From positions 68,437,112 to 68,501,111 of the forward strand of contig JALGQZ010000004.1 of assembly GCA_023105745.1 (NCBI GenBank): a DNA stretch of 64,000 nt, in the 5' to 3' direction. Position 1 is the first letter of the stretch. Each line of letters starts with the position of its first letter. This document shows positions 1,616 through 35,793 of the stretch, in pieces. The stretch comes from Austropuccinia psidii. Its lineage: Eukaryota > Basidiomycota > Pucciniomycetes > Pucciniales > Sphaerophragmiaceae. A model generated the notes under the pieces. That model ran no database searches. It saw nothing but the letters and a program-made list of their open reading frames with translations, and was not told where the DNA came from. Both the position numbers and the translations under genes were made by a program.

Positions 1616-2158
1616 TGGCTATTACTTCTTCAAAATCATGAAAAATGCCAAAACAGAAATTTCAATCCAAAAAATCTTCAAAACCTTCAATATCTTGCAT
1701 TTTGCGCATTTTGGCCAAAAAACCCCATAAAAACAACAATTTGGGGGGAATTCCAGGAACTTTGGAATAGTCCAAAGCAAGAAAAAAGGCCAATTTTGGC
1801 CCAACCTCAAAATGAAGACGATTTGATAAAAAAAAGCAGTGGTTTCTAAGGACATAGACCTGAAATCACTTTTTATCATAAGCCATGAGGACTCAAGACC
1901 AATTGAGTGAAGAGCTCTGCAATGAGAAGAAGATCAAAAATAGAAGAACAGGAGGAAGTGAAGAAAGTTCAAAGAAGGGGAGAAAAACAGAATCGAGTCA
2001 AAGAAGAAGGACCTACAAGTTGTGAAGATTAAAGGGTTGGAAATTATGATTTATGAAGAGGAATTATGAGGGATGAAAATTGGGTAATTGGGGGAAGAAA
2101 CTTCAGTTGATCTTATCAAGATTCACTATTCTTATGGTGCTCAGAGCTCACCACTTTC

Positions 2159-2171
2159 AAGAGGGGGGTAA
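2159..2171 (+). promoter_or_regulatory. Polypurine tract of the family B element
   Basis: AAGAGGGGGGTAA lies immediately 5' of the LTR start TGTCAC at 2172. This is where a plus-strand primer is expected. The matching site of element E reads AAGGTGGGGGGTAC at 35780-35793. Confidence 0.7.
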
Positions 2172-2545
2172 TGTCACAGCCATGGAGACAGGCAGGGCAT
2201 TACCACTCATTACTAATGGAAAATCTTCCAACACCTAATCAGCAAGGGGTTTCATGGAAGATTCACCAAATACAGTTCCAATCCTCAATACAGCTCAATA
2301 CAGGCAAAACCCAAATACAGGCCTGCCTCCAATACAGGTGAAAATACCTGTATTGATTCAAATATCTGTATTGGATACACCAATACAGTTTTACATCTCA
2401 AATACAGGTTTCTCAATCATACAATCATGGTTTCTCAACACTCAAACTCCAGGATGGCACTTTTTCACCTATACCAGCCCCCTTTTGCCCACCTGGGGGG
2501 TTTTCCCCCAGTTAATTAAAATATTGGATTTATTACTTAATATTA
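2172..2545 (+). repeat. Family B LTR, left part
   Basis: The first 374 bp of the 3' LTR of the family B element, beginning TGTCACAGCC. It is rich in CAATACAG and CTGTATTG motifs. It stops at TATTA, where the PIF/Harbinger element begins, and resumes at 10556. Confidence 0.8.
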
Positions 2546-2570
2546 GGGGGTGTCAAAGTCACCAAATCCC
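2546..2570 (+). repeat. PIF/Harbinger left terminal inverted repeat
   Basis: Reads GGGGGTGTCAAAGT then CACCAAATCCC, and pairs with 10531-10555 with one mismatch. It is followed by several AAATCCC / GGGATTT motifs to about 2700. Confidence 0.85.
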
Positions 2571-2826
2571 GCCTTAAAATAACACGGGATTTGGACCCCA
2601 AATCCCAACACTAAATCCCGGGTTTGTTATGTGTAAATCCCATGGAATTTTAACTGAGTCCCCTGGTATTTTGACCAAATCCCATGCATCTGGGATTTCA
2701 GCTTGAAACCTAACCCAAAATAGTACTCACAATTCATACCTGCACAACATATTCTTCTACACTCCATTTTGGATAATCTGACCGAACAGCTTACAGTCCA
2801 TTTATACTTCTTCATACATATAATAA

Positions 2827-4053
2827 TGCCTCAATCCAAAGCAAGACAAATCAAGACAGATATGAAGATCACCTCTAGCCTGCCTCATTCATCAGGTCAC
2901 TTGATACGTACAGATTATTTAACCATAATTAATTGGCTTTCAGTCAATGCCAATTTTGAGTCATGTTTTGGTACTAGTGGTTCAACAACTATTGGAAGAC
3001 CTCCCTCATCAAAGCAGCATGGATTTCAGCTTATGGCAATTGAGGTCAACAAAAAATCACGTAATCAACTAAACCTTAGTTCAAGCAGCATATGAGATCA
3101 ATGGCGAACATATAAAAAGAAATATATGGCAGCAAAAAAATTCGAGAATTTAACTGGGGCTGGAATCACGGAAGAAGATGAGAGTAAAGGAATAAAGTCA
3201 ATGAGTGAAAAGCTTGAAAGTATGTGTCCTTGCTATGCTGAAATGGATGGGCTCTTTGGCCACAAGCCCAATGTCACTCCGGTTGCAAGCTATGATTCAC
3301 AAGCAAAAGACAGCTTAAATGGTGATGATGATGATGTGTTGCCCAATAAGGTAAGTTATTGTCTCTTCCTTTTTTACCTGCAATAATTAAAGTTCATGTG
3401 CTTTTTAAAGGAGAATAATGGATTGGAATCACCTCTCAATCTTGTTCCTTTGGTTCATAATGAAGATGACTTGATTCAAGCGGAAAACCTTCAAGATGAA
3501 TCAGTAAGTATTTTTAAGCCTGATACTTATGAAATCCATTGTTGATTATTTCTCCTTTGAACAGCAAATTAAATCCATAACGCATTCAACACAAAAGCGT
3601 AATCAAGCATTGACACCCAACTTGAATGACAAGAGTGGCTCTAGTCAAAGGCCAATGGATATGTTTGCACCGACATATGCCAGTTTTCTTGAATCACGGC
3701 AAAAGGGCATGTTTTGGAATTATGGCTACTCTGATCAATCCCACTGACTAAATTCATGATTTGTAGCCCGTGAAACCAGTGACAATGCTTGTTTGGAGTG
3801 GGACAGGGAGAGGTGGATTGAAGAGAAAGAAAGCAACATGGAAAAGCAACAGTTTGAAGAAGTCAAGTTGTAAAAGCAAATGGAGTTTGAGGAGAAGCAA
3901 CATGCAAAGCAATATGAATTTGAAAAAGAAAAGTGGAATCGTGAATTGGAATTGAAGGAAAATCAATGCTAGATGGATCTCACTATAGCGGCATTGTCAT
4001 CAAGCAGGCCAATTGGGGAGCTGGAATGCATTCTGGCATTAATCAATAAAAAA
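2827..4053 (+). pseudogene. PIF/Harbinger ORF1, Myb/SANT-like DNA-binding protein, broken
   Basis: Plant and fungal PIF elements encode, beside the transposase, an ORF1 with a Myb/SANT-like domain that helps bind the termini. An ATG at 2827 opens a basic N-terminus followed by a Myb-like segment (LIRTDYLTIINWL... then QWRTYKKKY). Acidic and Ser-rich linkers follow, and the gene ends in a charged coiled coil (about 3800-3960, Glu/Lys/Gln-rich). Introns are visible at about 3351-3410 (GTAAGT...AAAG) and about 3504-3564 (GTAAGT...ACAG). In-frame stops at 3093 (TGA), about 3868 (TAA) and about 3970 (TAG) break it. The family call rests on context and pattern rather than strict motif identity. Confidence 0.6.
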
Positions 4054-4994
4054 TAACTTATTACATATATGTAATGTGATCCATTTATATGTGGTGCTTG
4101 TTCAATAAATCTTATGTTTATGTTTAATGATTGATCTTATGTCATGAAATCTAACTCCACTTTATTACCAAATGGAAATTTCAATTTTTACACATAATTG
4201 GGGCACCAACTTGCAATTTCAATTTCATATGAAATTTATTTGCAATTTGAGACAGATTGGAAAATTTGGGCAAGTTTTGCATTGAGAATTTATATGAAGT
4301 CTGTTCAAAAATCAAATTTGATGATGGCTTTTTTCCTTTTTTATGAAAATGTCATTTTATGGTTTTTTTTTAATTTTTTCATCTTTTTCTATATGTTTTT
4401 TTTAATTTAATGGTTATTTTGTTTTTTTCAGTTTGAAGGGTTTCAACTTTTAATTGGGCAATGTCCCTTGTTTTGTTGATTTTTGATTTTTAATTTTTTT
4501 TTAAAGTTGATTTTTTTCTTTAATTTCTTTTAATTTATTCTTTTTTATTTTTACTTTTCACCTCTCCAATTTAAAAAAAAAAAACCTTTTTTTTTAATTT
4601 TTTTTTAATTTCAAATCTTAAATTTCACTTTTTTTTTATCATTTTGACTTTTTACCCCTCCCTCTTAAAAAAAATTCACCAATTTTTTTTTATTTTTTTT
4701 TTTAAATTTTAATTTTTAATTCTCAATTAATTTTTTTCTAATTTTACTCTTCACCCTTCCCTCTAAACAAAAACCGACTTTTTTTAAAAATCAGGTAAGT
4801 GAATTTCTCTTCTTTTTGTTTAATCATAACCATCTTTTGCTAATTTTTTTTTTATTTTTATATAGGTATTTTTTTTTGTCTTTTAATTTTTTTTTATTCA
4901 ATTTTTTGCACCTCCCAAACTCACCCACCCATCACCATCATCATCCACAACTCACCCACCCAACACCATCATCAATCACCATCCACCTAACTAA

Positions 4995-5034
4995 CCCTGG
5001 AACCTCCCAAATAGGCTCCTGGGAGGTTCCAGGG
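4995..5034. other. Perfect 15-bp inverted repeat (hairpin)
   Basis: CCCTGGAACCTCCCA at 4995-5009 pairs with its exact complement at 5020-5034 around a 10-nt loop. It is GC-rich inside very AT-rich DNA. No T run follows at once, and its role is unknown. Confidence 0.75.
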
Positions 5035-5130
5035 CCTGAGACCTTAAAATCGATCCAAATCAATTCGGAATCGATTCAGAAGGCCTCCCGAATCAATCCC
5101 AAATCAATTTGTCATTGTTTTACTTCTTCA

Positions 5131-5164
5131 TCATTCTAATGGCCCCTAGAGGCCATTAGAATGA
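5131..5164. other. Perfect 14-bp inverted repeat (hairpin)
   Basis: TCATTCTAATGGCC at 5131-5144 pairs with its exact complement at 5151-5164 around a 6-nt loop. It lies about 540 nt upstream of the Tet-like reading frame and about 100 nt from the other hairpin. Confidence 0.75.
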
Positions 5165-6243
5165 TTATTTTATTTAATTTTCATTTTTTTTTAAATTATA
5201 TCATTTAAATAAAAAATTATACTGATGTTTTTTTTTTCTATAATTCTCATTACTCTTTTTTTTCTTTTTCAATTCTGGAATTTGAGAACTGATCTCAATT
5301 TTTTTTTCTTATTATTCATTTATTGACTTTGAATAATATCTTACTAATTTTTTTTTGATTTTTTTTTATTTCAAAAATCTATGACTGATAATGATTTCTT
5401 TAACACTGATGATTTTTTTTTAATTTTTTTTTAATCATTTATTTTATTTCAAAAATCATTTACTGATAATGATATTTTTTTCCTTTTTTAATTTTTTGGG
5501 ATAATAATCATTACTGACCCTTGATTGATTTTTTATTTTAATTTTTGTTTCTCTTTTTTATTTATTTGTTCATATAGGGGAGGATTAATTATAAGAATTT
5601 ATTTTGCAATGTCATTTCATTTCCCATCCCTTCCATCATCCTTAAAATTCAAAAAAAAAATCTCCTCCTCCCTCTCATTCTTCCAATCATTTTGATGATG
5701 TCATGGTTAGGACTAAACCAGACTCAGCACATCATCAGAGTGATTTGAAAGATGATGAAGCTCATATTACTCCTCTTGATGTCATGGTTAGGACTAAACC
5801 AAATATAGAACATCATGAGGATAATAATACCAAATTAAATAATAAAAGAAAGCTCACCCAAAGCCAAAGACAACACATCCATGATTCAAAACAAATAATG
5901 TCTCACCTTGGCCATTCCAAAAATGAATTTAAAAACTTTTCAACAATTTCGATTGACAAGAAATCTGCCAATGCCTCATGGTTAAAACTTCCATCACTTA
6001 ACACTCTCCCCCATCCTTATATCCTCATTAATAAAACATCCAAGCCATTTTTGCCTGTCATCATATATGAAATAACCCCATTTGATAATTCTTCTGGCCA
6101 CTCTCAAATTCTGCAAAACATCATCATGACAATAATGTCCTTATCTCAAAATCAACAAGAAATTAAAACCAATAAGCAACTCCAAGGTGGCATTATGAAA
6201 GGTATTGGGTTTCAATCTGGTTCTGATGCTGGAAAATCTGCAG

Positions 6244-8224
6244 GTGTGTGATATTTTTGGCATATTACCTTAATAATTACTGACTAATTGTGAGCCTTGA
6301 GGTATATTTTACATACCCAAATAGGCCACAATTATCTTAAAAAGAAATTTTGAATTATGCAAAACTCATAAGTCATGCATATATCCAAAATTCATCATTT
6401 TCAATTTCAGAAAAGATGAATAACTTTTTATTGAGTAAGTAAATCCATGGATTTAAGACCAGATTTGGATTCTACACAAAAATTCACCTAGGGTAGCTCC
6501 ATAGAGTGAATAAGCTCAATTTAAGTATTTGAGGTGGTAAAATGGAAAATACTTCAATACCACATCATTAATACCACATAAAAGATCCGTGAAAATTTTT
6601 GTTTTTCTTGATTTTTAGCCAAAATAATGGGAAAGTGAGAAATCCCATGTTACATATACACTAAGAATAGTGTTATGCATGTTTTGAGCACTTAATATCA
6701 TGGTATTCTTACATGGACTTTTGGTACACCCATAGTGGATATCTCACTTTAAGCTTAAATTACTATTTTGACGTAAAAAATAGGCAAGGGGGACAAAAGA
6801 CATCAAAGAGAGCCAGGGTACCCAACTTCTGAGGCCTCAGAGGCGTGGATAGCTCCAGAGCATGGATCCATGGCTCATCTTGGCCCAATTGGTAAACTAA
6901 AACTCTTTGGGAACTTGGTTACCAAGTTACAACTACTGTAAAACATCAGAAAATAGCAAATAACCTGCTATTTTGACGTGCCAAGGAGGTAATGAGCTAC
7001 TTACACTCCTGTAACCATGTCAATTACTAATGACTTTCCATGGATAAACCCCAAAAGAGTAATTAAAACCCTTTTGGGACCCATATTCATTGATTTACCT
7101 CATAGCAACCAGCAAAACACTGCTATTTGCAATTCTACGTAGAAATGAGGTAAAACCTTCAAAAATTCATTAAAAATACAATTCTTAATGAATCTTTCTG
7201 AAACTTTCAGGACTAAAGGAGAACTGTATTATCTATGGTACAACCAAAAAGAATTACAGTTTTACTAGTAAAATTAAAAGTTTTACTTACAGTCCATTTT
7301 TGGATATTCTACGTGAAACACTGAATCTTCAAAAATTCACAGTAATTACAACCTGTGATGAAATTGGCAATAACATTGATAACTTTGAGAAATCAATGAT
7401 TATTTTAGAATAAAAGAAGATTTACAAGTGTTACTCCTTTTATTCTTAACCATATTGGGGTTGGTAGTCACGTAAAAGCATCAATTAAGTAATTATGATA
7501 ATCTTACATGACAACAGATGATGCAATCAATAATCCAAAAAGGTTTATTGTTTTCTCACTCACTGGTTTTTCAGTTTGCTCCATGGCACGCCTCTGTGAG
7601 CTGTGGTTGACTTAAAAGAAGCCTCTTCTTGCTGTTTTTTCATCATCATCTTATCAATTTATTAAATCTTTATTACCAACAAGTAAGTATTAGTTCAACT
7701 ATTCTTAAGTGTTTTAATTCTTTCAGAATCAATCAGAAAGACGTGAAATCATAGAATCCAACTATATATTGTTGTAATACTGTTATAAATCATTTTGATC
7801 CCTTAAATCCACAATTCCACGTCAAATTTCTCTACTTTTATTATCAATAAGTTCTTTGGAGTATTAGTGAGTCTTTTATCTTTAATTCTTAAAGTTTTTC
7901 TCTAGTAATAGTTTTCTTCAAGAATTATCTTTATAATTATTCTTGTAAAAGATAATTATATATTAAAATAATTTTATTATTTTAATAAAAGAAGTTTTTA
8001 TTATTAAATTCTTCTTGTAATTGATTCTTGTAGACAATTACTGCTCACTGTTATAATCACTAGTAGTGTATAACACGTGAAAGAAATAATTTCATAATTA
8101 TTTAATTGTGGTTATAATAATTTTTATTATTATATTTCATAAGAACAGACATAGTACTGTTGATTAATAGTAATATTATCATCAGTTTCATAGTCACATC
8201 TTACACTAATTACAAAATTATTAG
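6244..8224 (+). other. Intron of the Tet-like gene, enlarged by a solo LTR
   Basis: The 5' site AG|GTGTGTGAT is at 6244 and the 3' site TTATTAG|GTG ends at 8224. Removing the LTR plus one TSD copy leaves 59 nt (6244-6288 plus 8211-8224), a normal fungal intron length, with CTGACTAAT as the likely branch-point region. The LTR target duplication CTAAT lies in that branch-point sequence. Confidence 0.75.
6289..8205 (+). repeat. Family A solo LTR, plus orientation
   Basis: A 1917-bp LTR starting TGTGAGCCTTGAGG and ending CACATCTTACA, flanked by the 5-bp duplication CTAAT (6284-6288 and 8206-8210). Its reverse complement matches the LTR of element C at 38289-40208 over its whole length. The intact duplication shows a single insertion later reduced to a solo LTR by recombination. 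No internal retroelement genes remain. Confidence 0.95.
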
Positions 8225-8882
8225 GTGTTTACTCCAGAAAACCCGGTTTAACTCCTCATCAAATTGAAACAGATAACAATCAATGGATCAAGCTTCATCA
8301 ATATGACGAATTCGTTTACTCAAGAATCTCCCATTTTTCAAAATTAGCAGAAAATGAAAATCAATCATTAATGGAAGCAGCCCAATTACCCAACTTCAGT
8401 CAACTCAAATGGACTTCTGCCAATCCCAAGGAAGAACTCAAATTGTTTACCAATGTCATTGTCACCCAAGATGGATTTTTCAATAAGCCACACAAAGATT
8501 TAAATGATCTCAATGCCTGGACTTATGGTATATTTTCTTTTGTATCAAAAAAGATTTCCTTCCACTTCCTACTATCTTCACCCCCTCTGGACATGGCTTA
8601 CACTTCCCCAAATTAAAAATGGAGATTGATTTTTCAAAGAAACCTGGCATCATTCAAATTCTTTGGAAGACATCAACAATGGTTCATCATACAACATAAC
8701 CACCTCCAGAAATTATCAATCATGACAAAATTACTCATTTTGGATGTTCTTTTCAAATAAACCAGAAATTATTTAATGTAGGTGACAAATTCTTGAAGAT
8801 GACACCCACCGAAATTAATTCAAGAGTCAATGGGTACTTTGAAAGAAATATGCAGGATCAAAAAAGAACTAAAAAATCTTAA

Positions 8883-8969
8883 TTGTAAATACTTTTATTT
8901 TATGAATAACATCTCCACTTGGTTGTATGCCAATAAATTAAGTTTATAAAACATTGGTCCTGATGAAAT
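8883..8969. other. Tail-to-tail gap between Tet-like gene and transposase
   Basis: About 90 bp separate the convergent 3' ends of the Tet-like gene and the transposase. It is AT-rich with AATAA-like motifs (for example GAATAACA and CAATAAATT) that could serve as polyadenylation signals on either strand. Confidence 0.4.
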
Positions 8970-10249
8970 CTACAATTGACTATTTTTCCATGCCAAAGTG
9001 ATTGGTTTAATTTTTTCACGCATATTTACCACATCTTCCCCAATGTCATTGTTGGCCAGATTTTCCGCATGTGGTGGATCATCATCTTCATATAAATCAA
9101 ACCACTCATCACCAATTTGAGCTAACCTATTATGTAGTATCATGCAAGACACAACCCAACTAACAAAATATTCAATTTCATGATTATCCCTCATTTGATT
9201 TCACATTTCCCTTAGAGAAAACCACCTCCCCTTCAAAATTCCAATTGCATGCTCAATTCTGACCCTTGATTTTGCTAGACAGTAATGGAAAGAACGGTTG
9301 TCTTCATTATGTGCTACAACTCCCTTATATGCTGAGACAACCCAAGGAGAGCTTGCATATTCCAAATCTGCAAGTAAGTATTGATCCTTTTCATAAAACG
9401 CTTGAGGTGTTTGTGCTATTTTCATATGTTGATAGACATTTGAATCATGAAGTGACCCAGTACAACCAACATGCAGTGCAGTGAACTGTTTGTTGGTATT
9501 GCAAACCAGTTGTATTGACATAGAATACCTTATATGTAAATCATCAGTAAGATTTAAATAAAGAATAAAGATTCAACAGCTTACCTTTTTTTGCAATCAA
9601 AATACGCTTCACCATCATTGGGAGGATGTTGTGATAATGGTATGAGACTCCCATCAATAAACCCAATGCACCCAGGGGAGCCTTCTGCTTGCATTACTTG
9701 AGACATCTCTCTGCATTGTTCCATTGTTGGCCACACAATCACTTTGCACTTCAACTTCATTAATATCTGGATGACTCCTTGAGTGTACAACACAATAGCC
9801 CCATGGCTAATTCCAAACAACATTCCAATCTTTCCTAAAGCAGCCCCATTTCCATTTGATCCTAGCCTTGATAATGCCACAGCCAATCGGATGGCAGGAT
9901 TGCGTTGTTTGTTTTGTGATGAGTTTTGAAAGGTTTTATCAGCTTGAATCTGTGAAACCAATTTTTCAAATGATTCATGTGTGGTCCTACATAGCTGTCA
10001 AAACTTTTCAGATGAAAATGTCTGTAAATCATTCATTGTATACATGTAATGAGATGGATATCTTCTATGAGGATTGATGTATCTTTGTGATGTTATCATA
10101 TCTAATAAGATTATATCTTCCTGGATATCAGAATCACTATCAGAGTTGAGAGCATCGATGAACTGAAGTGAGCTCAAGGTCTGAAGTAAAAGTAGCCTTT
10201 GTGATGCCTTGGGCATGGTAAATGAAGAAAAGGCTGGTAGTAAATGCAA
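8970..10249 (-). pseudogene. PIF/Harbinger (HARBI1-like, DDE_Tnp_4) transposase, broken by stops
   Basis: The transposase cuts and pastes the element. Reading leftward: an N-terminal segment (10249-9998), then helix-turn-helix-like residues (NPAIRLAVALSRLG; FGISHGAIVLYTQGV), CIGFIDGSLIPL (first Asp), a likely 60-nt intron at about 9526-9586 (GTAAGC...ATAAG) joining DCKKR to YSMSIQLVCN, GSLHDSNVY, LLADLEYASSPW (second Asp) and RVRIEHAIGILKGRW (Glu). The frame is interrupted by TGA before QLCRTTHESF (near 9998) and by TGA after SLREM (9201), each where the family usually has Arg, which suggests CGA-to-TGA changes. It is convergent with the Tet-like gene. Confidence 0.85.
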
Positions 10250-10530
10250 TTTGAAATCAAATAACTTAATAAATGATGAGTGTATTTATATTTTATTCAA
10301 GAGAAGGAAATTTTTATGCAATTTAACGTGCCCTTACTGAGTTGTGTGTTTGAAAAATGTGCCTTTATGGGAAGCTAAAGGTGGGATTTTGGTATTTAAA
10401 CATGGGATTTGGTACCAAAAAACCTGTGTTTTTGTACCTCAAAATACCTCACCTCTTGAGGTGTGGGATTTCCCAAATCCCAAAAAATTAATGCGGGATT
10501 TTGGCAAAAAAAACTCGGGATTTTGAGTGT
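10250..10530. repeat. PIF/Harbinger right subterminal region with GGGATTT / AAATCCC motifs
   Basis: Between the transposase start and the right inverted repeat there are about eight GGGATTT or AAATCCC motifs (about 10382-10535), plus GGTACCAAAA and AGGTGTGGGATTT. The left end (2560-2710) has the same motif several times in both orientations. Such subterminal arrays are typical transposase or ORF1 binding sites. No promoter can be placed exactly. Confidence 0.6.
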
Positions 10531-10555
10531 GGGATTTGGTAACTTTGACACCCCC
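10531..10555 (-). repeat. PIF/Harbinger right terminal inverted repeat
   Basis: The reverse complement starts GGGGGTGTCAAAGTTACC and matches the left end at 24 of 25 positions. TATTA follows at 10556-10560. Confidence 0.85.
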
Positions 10556-10869
10556 TATTATTTTATTAATTATTAAGTTAGTCTTTGCCCTCCCTCACCT
10601 GTTCAGTAGAGTCCTGGTGGCCATATCCTTTATTAATCCTTTTCTCTTTTCTGAACAGGTTGAAACAGTGATACAGGATTATTTGTGGCTGGCTCTTTAT
10701 TATTGCTTTTGTTTTTCTCTCATACCTTTTAATGCTTATTATTTTATGACTAGGAATTTATTCTCTTATTTCATTACTCTTATCAATTGAGTATTTATTC
10801 TGAGCCCTCCATAAGTAGATCTGGTCACTGAGTTCCAGGTACTCTTCATTTAGAAGAGCCCCTGTGACA
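10556..10869 (+). repeat. Family B LTR, right part
   Basis: This is the continuation of the LTR begun at 2172. It carries the conserved block GTCCTGGTGGCCATATCC and GTTGAAACAGTGATACAGG and ends CCCTGTGACA. Together with 2172-2545 it forms an LTR of about 683 bp after removing the duplicated TATTA. Confidence 0.8.
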
Positions 10870-11181
10870 TATTCCCAGAATCTTCCTCTTCCACAGAGTC
10901 TTCCCCCTCTTCATCTTCAACTTCCCCTAATATTGCTCTTGCACCTTCAGACATGCCAGGGAAGCCACCCAAAAGTCCAGAAAAGGATCTTGATCTTCTA
11001 CATTTCATTTCAACTCTTCTTGAGGGTGCTTCTCCTTCCATTGGTTTTCTTCTGTCCAAGTTTGCACTCAGTTGATGAACTGATGGTGTGCAGTCAAGAG
11101 GAGCCCTTGCTGTAGGAGTGAGAACAGCTGGAACGTTTTGGGATCTAGTGTTCTTTTCTGGGGGACTATGCTGAACTGGAA
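10870..11181 (-). pseudogene. Family B gag, N-terminal remnant
   Basis: The minus-strand frame reads PVQHSPPEKNTRSQ... ARAPLDCTPSVHQLSANLD, then EGEAPSRR and FSGLLGGFPG, then an acidic run. It parallels the gag N-terminus of element E (MPVQHSPPARQTRSQ...). The codon at the expected start is ATT rather than ATG. The gag is cut at 10870 by the plus-strand family B element, and the rest would lie left of the window. Confidence 0.75.
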
Positions 11182-11913
11182 TTATTAACAGAAGTAGAAT
11201 AAAAACTTGATGGTATTGAGAACAGAAATCAAAGCTTGGCCAAATTAATCACAATAAAAATCTTGATGAGTCTTGAGGAATCAATTCAATTCTTGAGGTG
11301 AAACAAATTCAATCAATAATCAATCAATTCAATCAATAATCAACAATAGATTCAAATTCAATATCAATAATCTTGAAGAATTCAATAAACAATCAGCCAA
11401 TAAATCAATCAATGTCTTCAAGGTCAATTCAAAGTCTTGAGGAATGAATCAGTCAATCAATATCTTCAGGAATAAAACTCAATCAATAATCAATAATCAA
11501 TTCTTGAGAATAAATTGGTTATCTTGAGGAATTAAAAAGTCAATCAAATAAATCCAAATAAATCCTTAATTGATGAATCAATAACCCAAATGAATCCCAA
11601 TCAATTAACCAATCAATAACCAATCAGTAACCAATCAATAACTCCTGATAAGACCTGAATAGACAAACAAAGAGAAATTGTATTGAAATAAAATGAAGTG
11701 AAATGAGATGTTCAGCAATGATTAAGAAAGATAGGAAGAGTCAATTTTCATATGAATGAGATTAAAATTGATGAGAGGGAGAAATCATAATCATGAAAAA
11801 TCATAAAATCATTAAAGAGTCATAATTGATGAATGAGAGAAATAAATCTAAATTAATGAAAAGAAAGAATCAAGGATGGTCCATACAAAAAAAATATGAG
11901 TTAATTAATTCAA
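11182..11913 (-). other. 5' leader of the minus-strand family B element
   Basis: About 730 bp with no gene. It is dominated by AATCAAT / TCAATAATCAA repeats, which on the element's sense strand read TTGATTGATT. The leader of element E (29183-29933) has the same character and also carries TTGATTGA repeats, so the repeat-rich leader is a family trait. Confidence 0.6.
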
Positions 11914-15913: not shown

Positions 15914-18900
15914 CTCCTCCAGAATCTTCAAGGTGTAATTGTCTAAATACTTCGTGCACCTTGACCACTCCTAGAGGTTTAGTCAAAATATCTGCTATCA
16001 TGTCATCGGTTGAGACTTGAACCACCTTAATTAGTTTTTTCATAACACAATCGCGCACATACTGATACCTTACCTCAATGTGCTTTGTGTTTGCATTTAA
16101 TGATGCTTGCTTTGAAATAGTGACAGCTCCTGAATTATCATTGAATAGTGTCAGTTGAATGTTTCCATACCCCAAGTCATTCAACACAAATGTGATCCAT
16201 CGTAGTTGATTCATGCAGATGTTCATGGCAATGAATTTGGCTTCGGTAGTTGATTGAGCAACAACCGATTGCTTCTTACTTAACCAACAGACTGGATTTT
16301 CGGTCATCTTTAATATTAGCGTAATCGGCATCTACCCACCCAGTGAGCATTTCTTTGGTTGTGCATTGGGTATAGGTTAAACATTTATCCTTAGTGCCCT
16401 TGAGATATCTTAGCAAATGTTTAAGCCCGTTCCAGTGACACTGGTTTGGCTTGGTAGAGTATCATGAGAGTTGATTTACTGTAAAAAGAATGTCTGGTTG
16501 GGTATGATGGGCCAGATAGTTAATACTACCTATGGCTTGTTGGAACAAAGTCGTATCTATTACTTGGTCTGAAATACCTGATTCCAGTTCATTAAGGAAA
16601 TTTCCATTACACGGGGTCTTGACAGGTTTGCATTTATCCATGTAGAACTGCTGTAGAAGTCTTGTGATAAGATCCGTCTGATTTATTAGGAGTTTATTGG
16701 CGCTCCACTTCAACATATATCCGAGATGCTGGGTGGGGTTCTTCTTGAACTTGAGTTTGAGTATTGAATTTAACTTGGTGAGAAATTCACTAATTTTCTC
16801 TTCTGACCGACTAATAATGAATCCATCATCAACATGTACATGAAGTAATGAAGTTTTTTCAGAATTAGTAAATAGAGATTCATCTGACTGAGTACTAGTC
16901 AGTCCAAGATCATTGAGTATGGTGGTAAGTTTTGACTTCCACATACGTGGGGCTTGCTTAGTTCCATAGAGTGATTTCTTTAACCGCTAAACCCAGCTTT
17001 CTTTTCCCTTTTCCTCGTATCCTTTCACCTGCTTCACATGCACTACCGCATCCATTTCTCCATGAAGGAAAGCAGTTTCGATATTGAACTGGTAAGATAT
17101 GTATTTGAAATTCACAACCAATGATAACATTACTTTAAGAGTTTCATTACGTCCAACTGATGCCCACGTTTCATAGTAATGAAGCATATGCTCCTGATGG
17201 TTTCCTAGTACAACCCAGCAAGCTTTGTGTTGATAAACTTCACCCCATTTGTTACGCTTACGAGTAAGCCTCCACATACCACCAATAACTTTGGTGGGTT
17301 TCTCAGGGTAGGGAACAAGTTCTCCAGTGTTGTGGGATTGTATCCATTGCTTTCTTCCACTCAGTTCCTTCAATGGGGTCACTGATGGCTTGTGAATATG
17401 GAACTACATCAGTGAGTAGCAGTTGGTCAGGATTGTGAGTGTTTCTTTTGCCAAGTACAATATTGTCCTTGCTGATTGAGCTGGTGATGTTTTTTGGGGC
17501 TTCCTTTTAGTAAGGTACATAATTGTAATTCTTAAGTTTATTCATTACTGGAGCAGTACTAACCGGATTTGGCAGGTCATGACATGATGTATCTTGAGTT
17601 TGATCGGGACTAGGTGAACGTGAAACTGGGATTCGAAGCTTGACTTTGATCGAGTGACTTGTAGGAAGTTTTGACAATGGTTGATGCATAGACGGCATAA
17701 AAGCACCTACCACAGGTTGATAGTCTCGTGAGACTCTTATTTTTCCTGTCTCAAGATTGAGAAGTCGTAATCCATCAGAGTATCTTTCAAAAGTTAGTGC
17801 ACGAAGCACCTCTCCTCAGGGTTCAATCTTTTAAGTCGGGTTTAAAATCTTAGTCGTAACTCTAATTCCAAACGGAACAAGTCTGGCAAAGTCTACTTCT
17901 GGTTCGATCAGAGAGTGCACCTCCCTCAATGCCATAGTGGGAGATTTCATATTGAGATGCTTGTGCGGAAGCATGTTTAAAAGTAATGAGGCGTGGATGG
18001 CTGCCTCATCCCAGTATGCAGTAGGAATGTTTGAATGGCCAAGTAAACACCTGATTTTATACAAGAGTGTTTGGTTGAAGCGTTCAGCAACACCATTAGT
18101 CTGGGGAGACTGTGGAGGACCTCTCTCTAAAGAAATACCTTGGTTATTCTTAATCTCCATGAGATAGGCTTTAATCCGCTCTTCAGCTTGCCCTTTTTCT
18201 GATAACAGGAAGATACGGTTGAACCTTCTAAAATCGTCAACTAGTACCAATACATATCTATAGCCTTGACATGATGAGGATTGCGTGAAGTTTAATTTTA
18301 TTTTTTGTTCCTTTAAAAGTGTTTTTAAGTATGAGTCAGACGGATGGCCAAGAGTTAAGTGCCAATCTGACTCTACATTAGGCATTCTGTAGACTGAGAT
18401 TAGGGGCAGCCTTGAGACAAAGAGATTTCCTTCGCATCAAAATACATCAATGATGCGATTTTCATACTTAACAATGAAGAGGTTAGACTTCATAGTTAAC
18501 TTAAGTCCATGATTGCATAATTGAGATACGGATAATAAATTAGCTGGACCATTTGGAACATAGTAGACTGGATATAATTTAATACCCTTGAAGTTTAACG
18601 TCCCCTGATGAGTTACCTTGACTGGTGTGGAGAAGGTATTGATTTGTTTATTGACTGGAGTTGGATCCGTTAATAATGTTCGATCATTAACAACAGTTCT
18701 TCCGTCACTGGAGTCCATATAGATCGCACCATGATTTTGTTTTGGGATCATTGCGTTTACTTCATCTAAGATAAATGCTTCAGAATAAGAGGTATTTTGT
18801 CTTGTAGGTTCCTTTGGTTCAGACGTTGCATTGACTGATGAGATATTGTTATATGCTTGAAGTCTTTCCAATAATTTCTCAATTCTTTCGATGCGTTTGT

Positions 18901-22340: not shown

Positions 22341-25300
22341 TTAAGAGTTTATCTGAGTCAGGTATTTCTGATTCTGCCATCCATTCATCTTCATGTACTG
22401 GATTTCTATATCTGACAAGATATTCTCTTTGATTTTTACCCCTAAGTCTCCTTTCTTTATCTTTCTGTCTTCATTCTGTTCCACAGGTGGTACAGTTAAA
22501 GGAGTTGGGTTTCTTAAAGGAAACAATTCTTTATCAGCTGGTTGATAAGGTTCTATCAAGCTGACTGGAAATGTGGGGTGTTTATTTTCCAATTCACCAC
22601 TCAATTCCACTTGAACTGCATTGGTTCCATGTAAGGCAACAATAACAAAAGGTCCTACATAAGAATCTTTAAGTTTCTTTGGGCCTTTGATATTATTAAA
22701 ATTCAAGGTTGAAACTAGAACTAAGTCCCCTACTTTGAAGTCTGGTACTTTATGACTCTTGTCCCACTTCTGTTTTGCATAATCAAAAGCATCATCCATA
22801 CTCTGTTTTGCATGGTGTTTTACTTTATCAAGCATTAATTTGAAGCTGGAAGCTGTAGGATGAATGTCAATCAAGTCTTTCCTCAGTGTGTCTGCTGGGA
22901 GTCTTGGATTCCATCCCTTTTCTAACATAGCAGGAGTTTGTCCTGTGGAAGAATGGACTGATGTCTTGTATGCCAATTCTAATGCAGGTATCAGAGTGCA
23001 CCAGTCATGGGTAAAGCCATCTGAGTCTTTAAATTCTAATCCATAAGCACAAAATCTCCTGATCATGTCTTCTAAAGTTTGAATCATCCTCTCTGCTAGC
23101 CCATCTGTTTGAGGGTGATATGCTGTAGAGAATGATAACTTAGTCCCAAACAATCTATGAAGATTGGTCCAAAGTGCAGATGTGAACTTGGGGTCTCTGT
23201 CACTTATGATATTCTTAAATAACCCTGTATGAGAAATAACTCTACTCCATAAAAGAAGAGCTGTATCCATAGCAGTGTCATCATTATGACATGGTAAGAA
23301 TATGGAAGTTTTGCTATATCTGTCTACAATGACTAAACAAGCATTATAACTTTTGTCACCACTTGGAGGAAGTGCTGTGACCCAATCCATGTGAACAACT
23401 TCCCAAGGGGATTTTGGTTCTTGAATATGGATCATCAATCCAAATTTCTTGCCTGTACTCCTGTTTGCTTTTTGGCATCTATCACAGGTATGGCAATATT
23501 CAATGGTTTCTTTTCTCCAAGATGGCCACCATGCACAGTTCTTCACCTTTTCAAGTGTTCTGTCTTCTGATAGGTGTCCAGAGTAAATGCTATCATGGCA
23601 TTCATGAAGAATGGTATTGATGAGCAATCTACTACATAGTGTCATTACACAAGAATGTTTTGTTCTATGGTAAATAATCCCATCAAACAAGTGAAATCTT
23701 CCTTCAGAATAGGAATTTTTCCAAACTTCATCTAGTGCATTAACCAAAGATGTGTCTTTGCAGTCTTTATCCAATAAAGAAGCCAAGATATGGCAATTCT
23801 TGTCTTGTTTATAAGACTCTCTGACCTCTTCAAAGAATTCAGTCCCAATATCAGTTATGTTAATCCCTTCAATTGGAATCTGTGGTTCAGCTTCCAAAGG
23901 TACATAGGCTGGGTTATCAGGAGTGTTGGCTAGAGCCCATCTACTAAGTCCATCAGCATTTTTGTGAATGTTTCCTGCTTTATGAACTATAGTCATGTCT
24001 CCTCTATATTCTTGAATGGCTATTTGCCATCTCAACATATGTCTGTTGGGAGTTTTCATGTTAAGAAGTGATTTCACGGCATTACAGTCAGTTATCACTT
24101 CAAAAACACTGCCATCAAGGTAATAGTGTAGTTTCTCAAGTTCCCATACCAAACATAAGCACTCCATTTGGCTTGCACCATATCTGGCTTCTGTTGGTTT
24201 GATTTGTCTTGAGATATAACAAACTGGTCCTTCTGTAGGTATGTCATCAATAATTTGGACTTGGTGTAGGGCTGCCCCTAATCCATCTCCACATGCATCA
24301 ATGTACAATTTAAAAGGCATATTCCAGTCAGGCATGAGGAGTAAAGGTGCTTCTGTAAGGGCTTTCTTTATCTTCTCATAAGCTCTAATTCTTTCCTGTG
24401 TCATTTCAAATACAGTCTGTTGATCACAGATTCTATAAAGTGACTTGGCTAGAATTGCAAAATCTTTCAAGTGTTTCCTATAGTAACTAGCAAATCCAAG
24501 AAAAGACATCATTTCTTTTTTATTCTGGGGTATTGGCTTAAGTAACACTGCTGCTACTTTATTTTTGTCAATACCCAAGCTCAAACCAGAAACAACATGT
24601 CCTAATGCTTTGAGTTCTTCAAAACCAAAATTGCATTTCTTAAGTGAAATTTTCATGTTCACTTCTGCAACTTTATGAAGTACTCTTGCAAGTCTTTCAA
24701 GGTGCAAAGACCATGAGTCAGAACATATAATAATATCATCAATATAAATGATAAGCCATCCTTCAGACAATTCTGTGGGGAAGATGGTATTCATCATTCT
24801 TTGATAATGAGATGGAGCATTTTTAATGCCAAATGGCATTCTAAGATACTCAAAAATGCCACAGTGAGTGATAATTCCAAGTAATTTCTTAGCTTTGGGT
24901 GTCAAAACATTTTGATGAAAGCCTTTCAATGCATCCATTGATGTTATATACTTGGCTTTAGACAATTGAGTCAAGGTTTCTTGAATTCTAGGGATTGGAT
25001 ACCTATCTGGAACTGTGTAGGAATTCAAAGCTCTAAAATCTCCAACCATTCTTGATTTATCATTATGCCATGCAATAATAACAGGTGTTGTCACTTCAAC
25101 TTCCTCATTATGGCCTACTTTCCTTAGCACACCAAGTTGGATCAACTCTTGGATATGTTTTTCCAAGGCCTCTCTAGCTCTGGGACTGGCTGGATAAGCT
25201 GGTCTTCTAAGTACTTTAGGATATGGTCTATCAATATTAAGAGTAATATCAATTTCATGTCCCCTGATAGCGCCTAATGGTTCATTATCAGATGCAAATG

Positions 25301-25406
25301 CATTATCGTATGTATATAATACATCAATAAGTTCATTCCTCATCTTTGGTGACAATGATGGATTAATTTGTGCTTCAAAAAGTTGTTTAGACACAAATTC
25401 ATCTTT
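22341..25406 (-). CDS. Element C pol: reverse transcriptase, RNase H, integrase
   Basis: An open frame of 1017 codons from the first Met (25394), in frame with the upstream gag-protease ORF across one TAA (25407-25409). RT holds the priming and palm motifs ([27 protein letters not shown]; catalytic IIYIDDIII). RNase H begins [15 protein letters not shown]. Integrase has an HHCC zinc finger (HECHDS...H...CHTCDRCQ) and a D,D35E core ([30 protein letters not shown]). A Ty3-type C-terminal region follows ([30 protein letters not shown]). There is no clear chromodomain. It makes cDNA from the element RNA and inserts it. Apart from the TAA it looks intact. Confidence 0.9.
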
Positions 25407-26735
25407 TTAAGTATCTTTGACAGAAGATACTACAGATATCTGTTTTGGCATATTGGAGAAAGCAAATTTTTGTCTTTTGTTATCTCCAATTGTGAAATAT
25501 CTGTCCTTATGGTTATTTATATCAATACCATAAATATTTAAGTAATCATTTCCAAGAATGATGTGCTGAGATGTGCAATTATCCATTACTACAATCTCAG
25601 TCTTCATTCTTACACTTCCTGCTGGATGTGGGAATACAATATTAGTGTCCAATATGCCCAAGGGGTACATATTGTTACTGGCACTACTGAATTGTACACC
25701 TTCTATTGGTAATAGATGGTTTTTCCATTCAGGAAGTATAATTTGGAGATAATCTTTGCCAACACAAGTGCAAAATGCCCCTGTATCCAAATTTACTTTG
25801 GCTTCAATATCACTCATCAGAACTGATGTGATACAGGATGCTCCAGCAGTATAACCCTTTCCTCTAGCAGGTTTTGTTTTACACATTCTGGCATCTTGGA
25901 TATTGATCAGGTTGCAGAAATCCTCACTGTACTGTGGAAAGTGGGTATGGACTTCTGTGACCTCAAAGAAAGCTGAAATGTTTTCAATGGGATAGTCCTC
26001 CACTGGTGTATCTTCAGAGACTGCAGAATCTTGATCAGACTCTTCTTTCTCCTCAGTACACTGAATTTCTTCAATGACTTGAACTTCATTTATTTTTGTC
26101 TTCTTAGGGCAAGTGTTGGCTAAATGTGAAGTACTTCCACATTTATGACACTTCAAGACAGGTCTTTCTGGTCTTCTTTCTTCTCTAGGAATCTTTGAAA
26201 CTATTTTGGACTCTATTGGGTTTTTAACCCAAGTTTTACCAATTCTTGTCCTGGTAATGATATCTTCCATAGCATTAATGTAGTCCTCTGTTGAACATGG
26301 TTCCACACATCTGCTTTTGATAGCATGTTCCAGTTCTCCTCCACACTTTCTTAATATTTTCATATTAATCATAGTGTCAGACATATCTGGTTGTAAAGCA
26401 GATAATCTGTCTTTTTGTTTGAAGAACCAAGTAAGTGGTTTGTCTTTTTCTGAGTTAAAAATGGCACTTTCAAAAGCATTTTCCATTTTAAACCTCCAAG
26501 AATTATTAGCCCATTTGGTAATCACTTCAGATTTCCACCAAGACCAGTCATGTTTACCATGATCAATCCTCATTTTGTAATACCATTTCTTTGCAGTTCT
26601 GGTAAACAAACAGTGTAATTTCCCCACTATGATTTCATCAGGTATATTTTTTTTTTTTTTTTTTTTTTGTACGGAAGTCTTCTTGCAACATATCAATAGT
26701 CCTGATGAATTCAATATGGTTGTATTCTCCTTCAC
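25407..26735 (-). CDS. Element C gag capsid, CCHC knuckle and protease
   Basis: 442 codons read leftward to TAA at 25407. The capsid part (WYYKMRIDHGKHDWSWWKS; DRLSALQPDMSDTM) aligns well with element D at 63415-63700. It is followed by the zinc knuckle CHKCGSTSHLANTC (CX2CX4HX4C) and an aspartic protease with VNLDTGAFCTCVG (active site DTGA). The start is obscured because an A22 tract (plus-strand T run 26647-26668) lies at the N-terminal border and shifts the frame from the upstream ORF. The first codons listed by a simple ORF reading are therefore not the real start. Confidence 0.85.
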   Translation of the reverse strand: MKENTTILNSSGLLICCKKTSVQKKKKKKNIPDEIIVGKLHCLFTRTAKKWYYKMRIDHGKHDWSWWKSEVITKWANNSWRFKMENAFESAIFNSEKDKPLTWFFKQKDRLSALQPDMSDTMINMKILRKCGGELEHAIKSRCVEPCSTEDYINAMEDIITRTRIGKTWVKNPIESKIVSKIPREERRPERPVLKCHKCGSTSHLANTCPKKTKINEVQVIEEIQCTEEKEESDQDSAVSEDTPVEDYPIENISAFFEVTEVHTHFPQYSEDFCNLINIQDARMCKTKPARGKGYTAGASCITSVLMSDIEAKVNLDTGAFCTCVGKDYLQIILPEWKNHLLPIEGVQFSSASNNMYPLGILDTNIVFPHPAGSVRMKTEIVVMDNCTSQHIILGNDYLNIYGIDINNHKDRYFTIGDNKRQKFAFSNMPKQISVVSSVKDT

Positions 26736-27686
26736 CAGAGAATGTTGGCCATTCTTCTATTTTGGGAATATCTCTTGCAGAGTAGGCATTTTCTCCTAAG
26801 AATGGAGTCAAACTTTCTTTGATAGAAAGTTTTTCTTCAGTCAAGGGTGTAGAATGTCTTGGCATATGTGGTTCATGATTCTTATGAATTTGCTCCACAC
26901 TTGCAATTATATCATTCTTCAATTTCTGCCTCTCACTGTCACTTTTTGCTAAATGTATAGCAAATTGATTGGTGTTCTTAACTATTTGTAAGACATGGTC
27001 TTCAAGAGTTTTAAGTCTATCATTTACTTTAAAAATGGAAGGATCCTCTGTGTCATTATTTTGACATTGGTCCTCAATTCTTTCACAAGCATTGCTAATT
27101 GACTCAAGGGTGACATTTGTCAATTGATGCCAATCAGAATGTTGCTTGTCATTTTTCTTCAAATCATTGATGTCTAATGTAATTTGCTTCAACTTTGACT
27201 CAAGTTTGCCAATTTCAACACTAATACTTCTATGTACATCATTTATTTGCGTGGAAAAGTCCTGTTCATCCTTTCCTGCTCCTTGGCTGTGAATTCCATA
27301 AGAGTTCTGGCCATATTGAAGACATTGTCCACGGCTGAAGGCTCCAATTTGGGGATCCTGTACCCTTGTGGGTAAGGTCTGTGCCAATTGGCTTTGCCTT
27401 TGCCCTTGCCTTGATGGTTCTTGGGACCTCTCTGTTTCTTTTGAGGTCCTTTGGGCTTGTCCTTGGATGCTTCTGGAGCTGGTTTGGAGCTGGTAGATGC
27501 CACTGGTGCCTCTGTCTCCAAAGCTGGAGTCATTTCCAACTCTTTCTTCTGGTCTATGGATAAAAGACTTTGGTTCTTCAACCAATTCTTTATCTTTTTT
27601 ACCTTGTCTTTGCAAGACAGGGGGCTCCATCCTCCTAAGAGTTCTATGGTCTTCTCCTGACCCAGAAAGCTCTTGATGTGTAAGTA
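26638..27686 (-). pseudogene. Element C gag N-terminal ORFs (basic ORF and overlapping coiled-coil ORF), cut by element E
   Basis: Two overlapping frames are used. The first (27686 to 27243) carries KSFLGQEKTIELLGGW, a Lys/Gly-rich stretch with KGKGKANWHRPYPQGYRIPKLE and NVFNMARTLMEF, and stops at FPRK. The second, in the -1 frame, continues with coiled-coil sequence (ISVEIGKLESKLKQITLDIN) to WPTFSGEGEYNHIEF and runs into the A22 tract. Element D has the same two-frame layout. Element E interrupts the first frame at 27686, and it resumes at 37355. Confidence 0.75.
26647..26668 (-). repeat. A22 homopolymer inside element C gag
   Basis: Twenty-two consecutive T on the plus strand, i.e. A22 in the sense strand, encode a run of Lys at the border of the coiled-coil and capsid parts. 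Element D has no such tract there (EDSELPDRLV). It breaks the gag frame. Confidence 0.9.
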
Positions 27687-29182
27687 TGTCACAACCATGG
27701 CAATTCACCTCCTTGGATCCCCATATGGCATATCAAGCCACAGTCCTTTTATGGCCAATTGGCCATATCCATCACCAGTGGCCAATATGGCCACGTCATT
27801 ATCTTATGGACCATTTATGGCCATTTGTGTTTTGGGGCCTTCATGGCCCTTCACCTCAATCCAGCACCCATAGCGGCAATTTATGCCCAAATGGGTATTT
27901 CTGGTCATTTCCCTCAAAACCAGGGGAAATGGCCCAAATGGCTGTTTTTGGCCATTTGGGCTCATAATGCGCATTTGCGCACTTTTGCGCATTTTTGCGC
28001 ATTTTGCGCACTTTTGCGCACTTTGCGCATTTGCGCATTTTTGCGCATTTTTGCGCACTTTGACGCAAAGTGTCCAAAAGACACTTTCCCGCCTTTTGGG
28101 CCAGTTTTTGGCTCAGAACCCAAAAATGGCCAAAAACCCCAAAAGGCCCAGAAACACCATTCCAAGCTCTGAAGTCATTACATCCATCCTTTTCCCTCTG
28201 CCTTTCCATCTCAAGACCTTTGGACGTAATCTTCTTGCCAATCAACCAATATGCCATAAATGATGTTATATATCATTGTGCATCATTTTTCAACAGCAAT
28301 TCGATGGTGGCAATATCAAATGTTCATTTCAACATTCCAACATCTCATCACGTCATCAAGGCACCCAATCATTCAGAGGAATCATCAAGGCTCAAGAGCA
28401 AGTGTTTCAGCGTCAAAGACCAATGACGCCATCAAGCAGTCATTGGTTATTCTCACTCCAAGTATTCATTCCAAGGGAATACTTTCAATTCATTCTCAAG
28501 TGTATTCAAGAGGCAGTGCCAAAAAGAAGTTGTCAAGTGTCAAAGCTCCACTCAATCCATCTTGGCAACCATATTCATTTCAATACAGGCTGGATCCATC
28601 AAGACCTGTATTTCATTTTCAATCATGGGAAATTCATTCATCCCAATTCAATTTCAATATTAGCCAGCTGTATCAATTCCCAAAACAATCAATACAGCCT
28701 CAAGGATCAATACAGATCAGTTTCCAGCCTGAAGAACTCAAGCTCCCAACTTTTCACATATACCGGCTACCCTTTCCACCCTGGGGGGTTTTTCCCCAGT
28801 TAATTAATATATTTTGATTTTATTTTATCTCTATTTTCTTTTCAATTTAGTTAAGCAAATACTGATATTATTAAGTCAGTCATTTAGCAATTTTCTCTTT
28901 TCTCTTTCTTCGCCTGTCAATGGATATTTGGTGGTCATATCCTTACTAATTCCATTATTCATTTTTGGCAGGTTGAAACAGTGATTAAGGACTTACTTGG
29001 TTGGCTCTTTGGCCATTTGGCTTCCCTTTCCTCTTTTGCATCTCATCTTGTACCTGCATATCTCTTAGAGGAATTCATTCTTATTATTTTTATTCTTTAT
29101 CCTTTTGGAGTCTTCCAAGTGAGTTCCCTGATTGCTGAGTGCCAGGCCACTCTTGTATTTCTGTCCAAGAGCCCCTGTGACA
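27687..29182 (+). repeat. Element E 5' LTR
   Basis: 1496 bp, TGTCACAACCATGG to CCCCTGTGACA. It contains a GCGCATTTT minisatellite (27968-28065), CAATACAG / CTGTATT motifs (28580-28720), the block CCTGGGGGGTTTTTCCCCAG shared with family B, and GTTGAAACAGTGATTAAGG near its end. ORFs within the LTR repeat in both copies and have no protein-like motif. Confidence 0.95.
27968..28065. repeat. GCGCA minisatellite in the 5' LTR
   Basis: About ten units of the type GCGCATTTTT, GCGCACTTTT or GCGCATTT. The 3' LTR copy (36074-36238) is about 65 bp longer, and this accounts for essentially the whole length difference between the LTRs. Confidence 0.9.
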
Positions 29183-29933
29183 TTATATTAATTAACTCAT
29201 AATTCTTCTTCATTCATTCATTCTTTTATTCTTATATTTTGAATTCATTCATTCATTTCATCAAAATTATGATTCTTTGACGTTTTATGATCTTATGATT
29301 CTTCGTCACCTCTCAATTTTCCCTCATTCATTCTTCATTCTGAAAATTGAAAGCTGACCCATTTTTTAATTTCTGTTATCTTTTCAATCTCATTCTCAAT
29401 CTTAATCAATCTATTTTTATCCATAATTCAGGCATTTTTATCTTTGGTTCTCAAGTTATTCATCAGGTTATTCAGACACGTTCTTCATTTCAGGATTCAC
29501 TTTGATTTATTCCTCAAGAATTTTTCATTTTTTGGAAGAATTCACTTGAAAATTGATTTGATTGACTAATTTGACATAATTGAAATTGACCTCAAGATAA
29601 TTGATTGACCTGAAGACTTTATTGATTTTGCTGATTATTCACATCAAGATTATTGACATAAATTGATTTTGACTCGAGAATTCATTTTGATTGATTGATT
29701 TTTTCTGCAAGATTTTGATTTGATTTTGATTGTTTGATTGATTGTTTTTATTGACTTCAAGATTCTCATTGATATTGATTTTTACTTCAAGACTCATTTG
29801 ATTTGATTGATTGACGTATTTGGAGAATTTTGATTCATTGATTATCCAATTTCCTCAAGATTTGATTGTTGATTTTGTACTTCAAGAAAATTTTGATTTT
29901 ATTTCATTTATTTGGTTGATTATTCCTGAAATC
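29183..29933 (+). other. Element E 5' untranslated leader
   Basis: About 750 bp of T-rich sequence packed with TTGATTGATT and TTGATTTTGA units, especially 29560-29820. No ORF with protein character precedes the gag ATG. The family B leader at 11182-11913 has the same repeat type. Confidence 0.7.
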
Positions 29934-31271: not shown

Positions 31272-31303
31272 GTGAAGACCATGTTGTGTTCAATGGTCTT
31301 CAC
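31259..31303 (+). promoter_or_regulatory. -1 programmed ribosomal frameshift signal
   Basis: In the gag frame the heptamer G GGA AAA (31259-31265) fits the X XXY YYZ slippery rule. It is followed by a 6-nt spacer (GCCTGA, including the gag stop) and a perfect 11-bp hairpin: GTGAAGACCAT (31272-31282), a 10-nt loop, ATGGTCTTCAC (31293-31303). Slipping one base back enters exactly the pol frame (AGC CTG AGT GAA ...). All parts are directly visible; activity is inferred. Confidence 0.85.
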
Positions 31304-34987: not shown

Positions 34988-35793
34988 TTCATTATGGTGC
35001 TTGGTGGGGAGAGGAATTACCAAAAGTAAGTCCCACTCCTGGTATGCACCTTTAGGGGTATTCTACTCTTTTTGTTGTAAGCATCACCTTGGCCACTCTG
35101 TGAGCACTTTGTAATTTTGGACACAGATCTTTGGCATGGCTTTCAACTTCATTTCCAATCTTATGGCCATTTTCACTTGGGACAATGGGCCATTCACTTT
35201 TCAATTCATTTCCAAGATTCCAAATTCAAATTCATTCCTTCAACAGTTTGTTTTATTTTTATGGCACTGGCGGGAGTGGTAATTACCAAAAGTAAGTTCC
35301 TCTCCTGGTGTGCACTTCCCTGAGGGGTCTACAATCTTGTCAAAACATCACCTTGGCCACTTTGTGAGCACCTGGCATCAAATTTATCTTTCCAGGTCCT
35401 TGGCCAATTTCAAAATCAGTTATCAACCTCCGTGATGAAGATTGGAACCTCCTCAAGATTCAATTCATTTCTCTTTTTCTTTTTCCTTTTCTTTTCTTAA
35501 TTTCATTTTCATTCTTTATTATTATTCTATTTTCATTTTAAATTTTCTTTTATCACGTCAATTATCACGTCAAAAATTTTCATTCATTTTAAAATTCAAT
35601 TCCAATCATGAAGCCAATGTCAAAAGAAGATCAAGCAAGTCCTGCGTCAAATGTCAAATTTTTAATATCAGTCTTCAAATTTCTTATCTTAATCAGTCCT
35701 CTTGAATCACTCTCTCAAAATCTTTCCAATAGCCTCAACAGGCTTCACCTTGTATTGGTGCTCAGGAGCTCACCATTTCAAGGTGGGGGGTAC
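34988..35793 (+). other. Element E 3' untranslated internal region with a direct repeat
   Basis: About 800 bp between the pol stop and the 3' LTR. It contains two diverged copies of a roughly 95-bp block (35014-35110 and 35281-35374), each with ATTACCAAAAGTAAGT, CTCCTGGT and CATCACCTTGGCCACT. It ends in the purine-rich tract AAGGTGGGGGGTAC before the LTR. No ORF with recognisable motifs was seen. Confidence 0.65.
35780..35793 (+). promoter_or_regulatory. Element E polypurine tract
   Basis: AAGGTGGGGGGTAC ends directly at the 3' LTR start (TGTCAC, 35794), where the plus-strand primer is expected. Confidence 0.75.

What the first reader, a model, noticed from the sequence alone, without database searches (positions are those of the whole stretch)
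2546..10555. A PIF/Harbinger transposon that carries a TET/JBP-like DNA oxygenase gene
Between two matched inverted ends lie a Harbinger ORF1, a Tet-like 2OG-Fe(II) oxygenase and the DDE transposase, the oxygenase and transposase tail to tail about 90 bp apart. Fungal TET/JBP genes are known to be associated with KDZ-class transposons; I am not aware of a description inside a PIF/Harbinger element. A transposon encoding a 5mC/T oxidising enzyme could remove or mark methylation on its own DNA and so escape silencing or mark excision sites. This copy is broken, so intact relatives elsewhere in the genome are the test.
Basis: partly seen in the sequence, partly recalled or inferred. Interest (0 to 1): 0.92.

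Follow-up and report, generated by a model that had tools for sequence, protein, structure and literature searches.

The report
Rust transposon carrying a Tet-like oxygenase
A worn-out jumping gene in a myrtle-rust-like fungus carries, beside its transposase, a gene for a Tet-like enzyme that probably edits methylated DNA; this kind of element was already described in rust fungi in 2025, so the find is real but not new.

Summary
Window 2546-10555 is one DNA transposon: inverted ends (24 of 25 bp identical), TA on both sides, an ORF1-like gene, a Tet-like 2OG-Fe(II) oxygenase (PF20515) and a DDE_Tnp_4 transposase, the last two tail to tail, 87 bp apart. It interrupts an LTR that is uninterrupted elsewhere in the window. 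This copy is dead; oxygenase relatives with an unbroken domain exist. The host is Austropuccinia psidii or very close. The novelty claim fails: Kojima 2025 (PMC12730594) describes TET+ Harbinger elements (PHISTA, TA target sites) in rusts, A. psidii included, and proposes escape from silencing. Additions here: a 7-bp motif clustered in both ends; a 1,981-bp intron-like gap at a junction shared by relatives; and, in 15 A. psidii sequences, no arginine where TET2 binds 2-oxoglutarate on the last strand, so 5mC oxidation is likely but unproven. The genome-wide copy survey could not be run.

The parts
2544..2545 (.). left target-site TA
   Evidence: sequence; TA also follows the right end; AT-rich, so weak alone
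2546..2570 (+). left terminal inverted repeat, 25 bp
   Evidence: 24 of 25 identical to the right end
2564..2698 (.). left subterminal cluster of AAATCCC, 7 copies (5 plus, 2 minus), the first inside the terminal repeat
2826..4055 (+). ORF1-like gene remnant; stop at 3093-3095 and further interruptions downstream
   Evidence: 16 relatives of the first piece; Myb_DNA-bind_4 only E 0.11 among relatives; extent of the later part read by eye
4061..5640 (.). AT-rich, T-run-rich spacer, 24% G+C
5609..6243 (+). oxygenase exon 1 (open stretch 5646-6251)
   Evidence: 187 relatives, best 94% identical over 99% of the piece; start read by eye against P0001
6244..8224 (+). intron-like gap of 1,981 bp, GT...AG
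   Evidence: by pattern, 15 of 171 fetched relatives end exactly at this junction and 37 of 171 read across it
8225..8882 (+). oxygenase exon 2: iron triad and last strand, in two frames with one stop
   Evidence: PF20515 E 7.2e-15 and 1.7e-5; translations
8970..10216 (-). DDE transposase, interrupted by stops; probable short intron near 9580
   Evidence: DDE_Tnp_4 E 1.2e-16, DDE_Tnp_1 E 1.4e-6 on 9204-9572; ends and intron read by eye
10383..10537 (.). right subterminal cluster of AAATCCC, 7 copies (1 plus, 6 minus), the last inside the terminal repeat
10531..10555 (-). right terminal inverted repeat
10556..10557 (.). right target-site TA
   Evidence: sequence
2172..10869 (.). LTR (flanks 2172-2545 and 10556-10869) that the element interrupts; uninterrupted relative at 55715-56450
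   Evidence: 587 of 743 aligned positions identical, 62 gaps

Best explanation
It is a decayed copy of a TET+ Harbinger-type (PHISTA) cut-and-paste DNA transposon of a rust fungus (Austropuccinia psidii or very close). In living relatives the DDE transposase, probably with the ORF1 protein bound to the arrays of AAATCCC near both ends, excises the element and inserts it at TA. The Tet-like oxygenase travels as cargo and most likely oxidises methylated cytosine on the element's DNA, weakening methylation silencing and CpG decay. Shown: anatomy, ends, insertion into an LTR, domain families, modelled fold of a relative. Inferred: DNA binding by ORF1, substrate and role of the oxygenase, association of the trio in living relatives of this family.
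Confidence: 0.72

Rival explanations
1. The oxygenase of this rust type, or of its A. psidii branch, has the TET fold but a different chemistry or co-substrate (as CMD1 uses ascorbate), so it marks DNA rather than demethylating it.
For: Fold match with CMD1 first, tied with TET2 within 1 Z. At the last-strand place of TET2 Arg1896, 0 of 26 relatives that fit my search pattern have Arg; 23 have His, 2 Asn, 1 Tyr. Arg289 of NgTET1 and Arg385 of CcTet serve 2OG binding (passages). Kojima leaves other activities open.
Against: Ten of the 11 relatives not named A. psidii carry Arg (3) or Lys (7) ten residues after the distal iron His, in the loop before the last strand; CcTet's Arg385 is nine after its His376, so that residue might do the job there; 0 of the 15 A. 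psidii sequences have it (my reading of the rows printed). P0157 and P0158 have another Arg three residues before the strand, and P0121 one inside it. 2OG-binding residues vary between subfamilies. An Asp near the first iron pair, in the column that would match the 5mC-contacting Asp of NgTET1 and CMD1, is kept in 23 of 25 rows.
Confidence: 0.15
2. The oxygenase is a chance passenger: a gene captured by this copy alone, with no role in the element's life.
For: The own-genome copy survey could not be run, so association in relatives was not tested here. No oxygenase and ORF1 relative was seen on one contig (contig lengths compared by eye).
Against: Kojima found TET+ Harbinger families in six rust species and mostly undisrupted TET frames. 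No inverted pair bracketing just the oxygenase gene stands out among the 25 longest of 141 pairs shown; no dedicated boundary search was made.
Confidence: 0.06
3. The oxygenase acts in transposition itself, marking excision or target sites, rather than in escape from silencing.
For: It is carried by cut-and-paste elements and Helitrons but by no retrotransposon in Kojima's survey.
Against: No link between oxidised bases and DDE transposition is known to me (recalled, not searched); seven element lineages share the rust type of gene (abstract), which suits a general anti-silencing role better.
Confidence: 0.05

Closest known systems
TET+ PHISTA (Harbinger) transposons of Pucciniales, Kojima 2025, PMC12730594
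   Same: Harbinger-type DDE transposase, Tet-like oxygenase of rusts (PU type), a third protein, TA target site; A. psidii among the hosts
   Different: No demonstrated difference; whether this copy belongs to one of the 15 families could not be checked (supplement not readable here). Subterminal repeats and the clamp arginine are not mentioned in its main text (term search)
Canonical PIF/Harbinger elements
   Same: DDE_Tnp_4 transposase, an ORF1-like partner gene, inverted ends
   Different: TA instead of a 3-bp target site; extra oxygenase gene; ORF1 without a clear Myb/SANT domain
KDZ (Kyakuja-Dileera-Zisupton) transposons with TET/JBP genes
   Same: A TET/JBP-type gene as cargo
   Different: Transposase of another family (ours is DDE_Tnp_4)
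CMD1, TET2, NgTET1, CcTet
   Same: Fold and iron triad of the modelled relative
   Different: No Arg at the last-strand place in the rust sequences examined

Membership tests
PIF/Harbinger (PHIS) superfamily | DDE_Tnp_4-type transposase | tested here: met
   E 1.2e-16 on piece 9204-9572 minus
PIF/Harbinger (PHIS) superfamily | terminal inverted repeats | tested here: met
   24 of 25 bp
PIF/Harbinger, canonical | 3-bp target-site duplication | tested here: not met
   TTA before, TAT after the ends; Kojima notes that related elements make 0, 2 or 3 bp
PIF/Harbinger, canonical | ORF1 with Myb/SANT domain | tested here: inconclusive
   Myb_DNA-bind_4 best E 0.11, 3 of 17; model too poor, pLDDT 39.5; one relative (P0184) carries the UniRef name Myb/SANT-like yet has no Pfam match here
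TET+ PHISTA | TA target site | tested here: met
   2544-2545 and 10556-10557; base-level proof from the uninterrupted LTR is blurred by an indel
TET+ PHISTA | transposase, TET/JBP oxygenase and third protein inside one element | tested here: met
   in this copy only
TET+ PHISTA | third protein without Myb/SANT | tested here: inconclusive
TET+ PHISTA | transposase groups with PHISTA in a tree | not tested
TET/JBP-type dioxygenase | HxD...H iron triad | tested here: met
   columns of H205, D207, H270 of P0112: 22 of 25, 23 of 25, 23 of 23 lettered rows, a few of these rows being frameshifted there; this copy shows all three in its separate pieces
TET/JBP-type dioxygenase | fold | tested here: met
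TET/JBP-type dioxygenase | arginine on the last strand that binds 2-oxoglutarate | tested here: not met
   0 of 26 pattern-fitting relatives at the place of TET2 Arg1896; by sequence alignment without superposed structures; a loop Arg or Lys in 10 of 11 non-A. psidii rows might replace it
TET/JBP-type dioxygenase | oxidation of 5mC or thymine | not testable with these tools
   needs an enzyme assay
KDZ transposons | KDZ transposase | tested here: not met
   the transposase is DDE_Tnp_4

The most novel reading that the evidence does not exclude
The transposon-borne Tet-like oxygenases of the A. psidii branch, perhaps of the whole rust type, lack the TET 2-oxoglutarate clamp and work with another co-substrate or make another DNA base, so that rust transposons write a so far unknown DNA mark on themselves rather than erase 5mC.
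Probability: 0.11. Interest if true: 0.75.

Novelty: already known. Interest (0 to 1): 0.33.

Why it matters
It confirms, from raw sequence, that a Harbinger-type transposon carries a Tet-like gene, with a clean insertion into an LTR. The missing last-strand arginine is a cheap, testable question about what these repeated rust enzymes do to DNA; that they demethylate rests, as far as I read, on fold and iron triad only.

Tried and rejected
Own-genome copy survey: the genome search (own, the element's DNA) was sent 14 times and never answered, so copy number, trio conservation and intron length in relatives are unknown.

Sequence profiles of the oxygenase (A1) and of ORF1 (A2) against solved structures: no match at E up to 1. 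ORF1 model: pLDDT 39.5, not used. Rfam, window 2000-11000: no match at gathering scores. Further copies of the end sequence in the window: no more than shuffles give (3 found against 4.4 expected; 6 against 4.8). The idea that 6251-8194 is a later insertion was set aside: the ends read GT...AG and relatives stop at or read across the same point; a second element nested inside a short intron is not excluded (repeats of 6200-8300 listed, none convincing). KDZ membership rejected. Linking ORF1 and oxygenase relatives through shared contigs: contig lengths (120 of 187 rows shown), 25 and 26 compared by eye, no match seen; the contigs are mostly short.

Full report
What is there. The element runs exactly from 2546 to 10555 (8,010 bp). 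Its first 25 bases match the reverse complement of its last 25 at 24 positions, and the 14-bp core has no other exact copy in the window. TA stands on both sides. The two flanks, joined in a script, align as one stretch with 55715-56450 (587 of 743 aligned positions identical, 62 gaps), an LTR-like unit beginning TGTCACAG and ending in CTGTGACA. So the element inserted into an LTR. That uninterrupted relative differs by about 20 bp next to the junction, so it does not settle the target-site length; TA fits, a 3-bp repeat (TTA before, TAT after) does not.

Genes. Pfam finds the Tet-like 2OG-Fe(II) oxygenase family PF20515 on pieces 8194-8613 (E 7.2e-15) and 8508-8699 (E 1.7e-5), and DDE_Tnp_4 on 9204-9572 minus (E 1.2e-16); six of the nine pieces scanned had no Pfam family at E below 0.01. 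Oxygenase exon 1 (open stretch 5646-6251) has 187 relatives at E up to 1e-3; of the 120 listed, 118 are named Austropuccinia psidii MF-1 and 2 have no name. Exon 1 and exon 2 are separated by 1,981 bp with GT...AG ends; of 171 fetched oxygenase relatives, 15 end exactly at that junction and 37 read across it, by pattern, which supports an intron rather than a private insertion, though its length in relatives is unknown. The first ORF1 piece has 16 relatives, 15 named A. psidii and one unnamed. Its Myb/SANT identity is not established.

Condition. The copy is dead: the oxygenase domain runs through two frames and a stop, the transposase is split by in-frame stops, and ORF1 has a stop after its first stretch. 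Relatives of the oxygenase with an unbroken domain exist: 24 of 171 fetched proteins hold the iron motif and the last strand in one frame, 13 of them from A. psidii by my sorting.

Ends. AAATCCC occurs 15 times in the element, 14 of them within 250 bp of an end, 7 at each end (left 5 plus and 2 minus, right 1 plus and 6 minus); 13 more lie in the other 56 kb of the window. Leaving out the 25-bp repeats themselves, 12 remain. Dinucleotide shuffles of the two ends gave a mean of 0.3 and a maximum of 4 copies in 2,000; the most frequent 7-mer of any kind with at least three G or C reached 7 at most in 1,000 shuffles; without that G+C limit the commonest 7-mer of a shuffle reached 12 at most in 500. 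Such arrays are likely binding sites of transposase or ORF1 (inference).

Methylation. CpG observed/expected is 0.24 in the element and 0.234 in the window; 0.061 in exon 1; 0.111 and 0.341 in the left and right flanks; 0.032 and 0.224 in two Gypsy stretches; 0.046 in the MULE frame. This copy is thus average and shows no lasting protection. In A. psidii, transposons lose CpG with age and methylation enzymes are encoded (passages of PMC8063080). A 2025 survey reports DIM2 and RID absent, and DNMT1 and DNMT5 present, in Pucciniomycotina, with an exception noted for P. hordei (passages of PMC12210899); PMC8063080 reports homologues of the two RIP methyltransferases in A. psidii but no classic RIP signature, so the papers differ.

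Known or new. Kojima (PMC12730594; abstract, introduction and first methods section, sections 3.1.4 and 3.4, first part of the discussion, figure legends and passages seen) reports 15 TET+ families with TA target sites from six rust species, A. psidii among them, classed as Harbinger, the lineage being named PHISTA, with a third protein, and proposes escape from methylation silencing. The finding is therefore an instance of a published kind. Its supplement with sequences could not be read, so I cannot say which family this is. A term search of its main text found no mention of arginine or of subterminal repeats. Of papers holding dioxygenase, Harbinger, transposon and 5-methylcytosine together, the library search counted 6 and listed 5; judged by title and term counts, Kojima's was the only one listed on the subject.

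Limit. The decisive test, intact full-length relatives in the same genome, was not possible: the genome search did not answer 14 times.

Noticed in passing
2546-2698 and 10383-10555: Mirrored clusters of AAATCCC at both ends, 14 of the element's 15 copies; likely protein-binding arrays.
   Followed up: yes
8703-8879 and relatives P0112 to P0168: Last strand of the rust Tet-like family has no Arg where TET2 has its 2-oxoglutarate arginine; mostly His (23 of 26).
   Followed up: partly
6244-8224: Intron-like gap of 1,981 bp without long open frames or convincing terminal repeats; may hold a decayed element.
   Followed up: partly
53382-55043: Long open frame with MULE transposase domain (PF10551, E 7.9e-27), about 0.7 kb from the uninterrupted LTR.
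   Followed up: no
28260-36989: Chromodomain Gypsy element with near-identical LTR-like open frames at 28260-28817 and 36432-36989, so probably young.
   Followed up: no
16465-18436 and 22344-27732: Copia remnant and a second Gypsy; the stretch 22341-27732 has CpG observed/expected of only 0.032.
   Followed up: no
10850-11248 and 29930-30242: Fragment on the minus strand, just right of the interrupted LTR, similar to the gag start of the Gypsy at 29811 (70% over 320).
   Followed up: no
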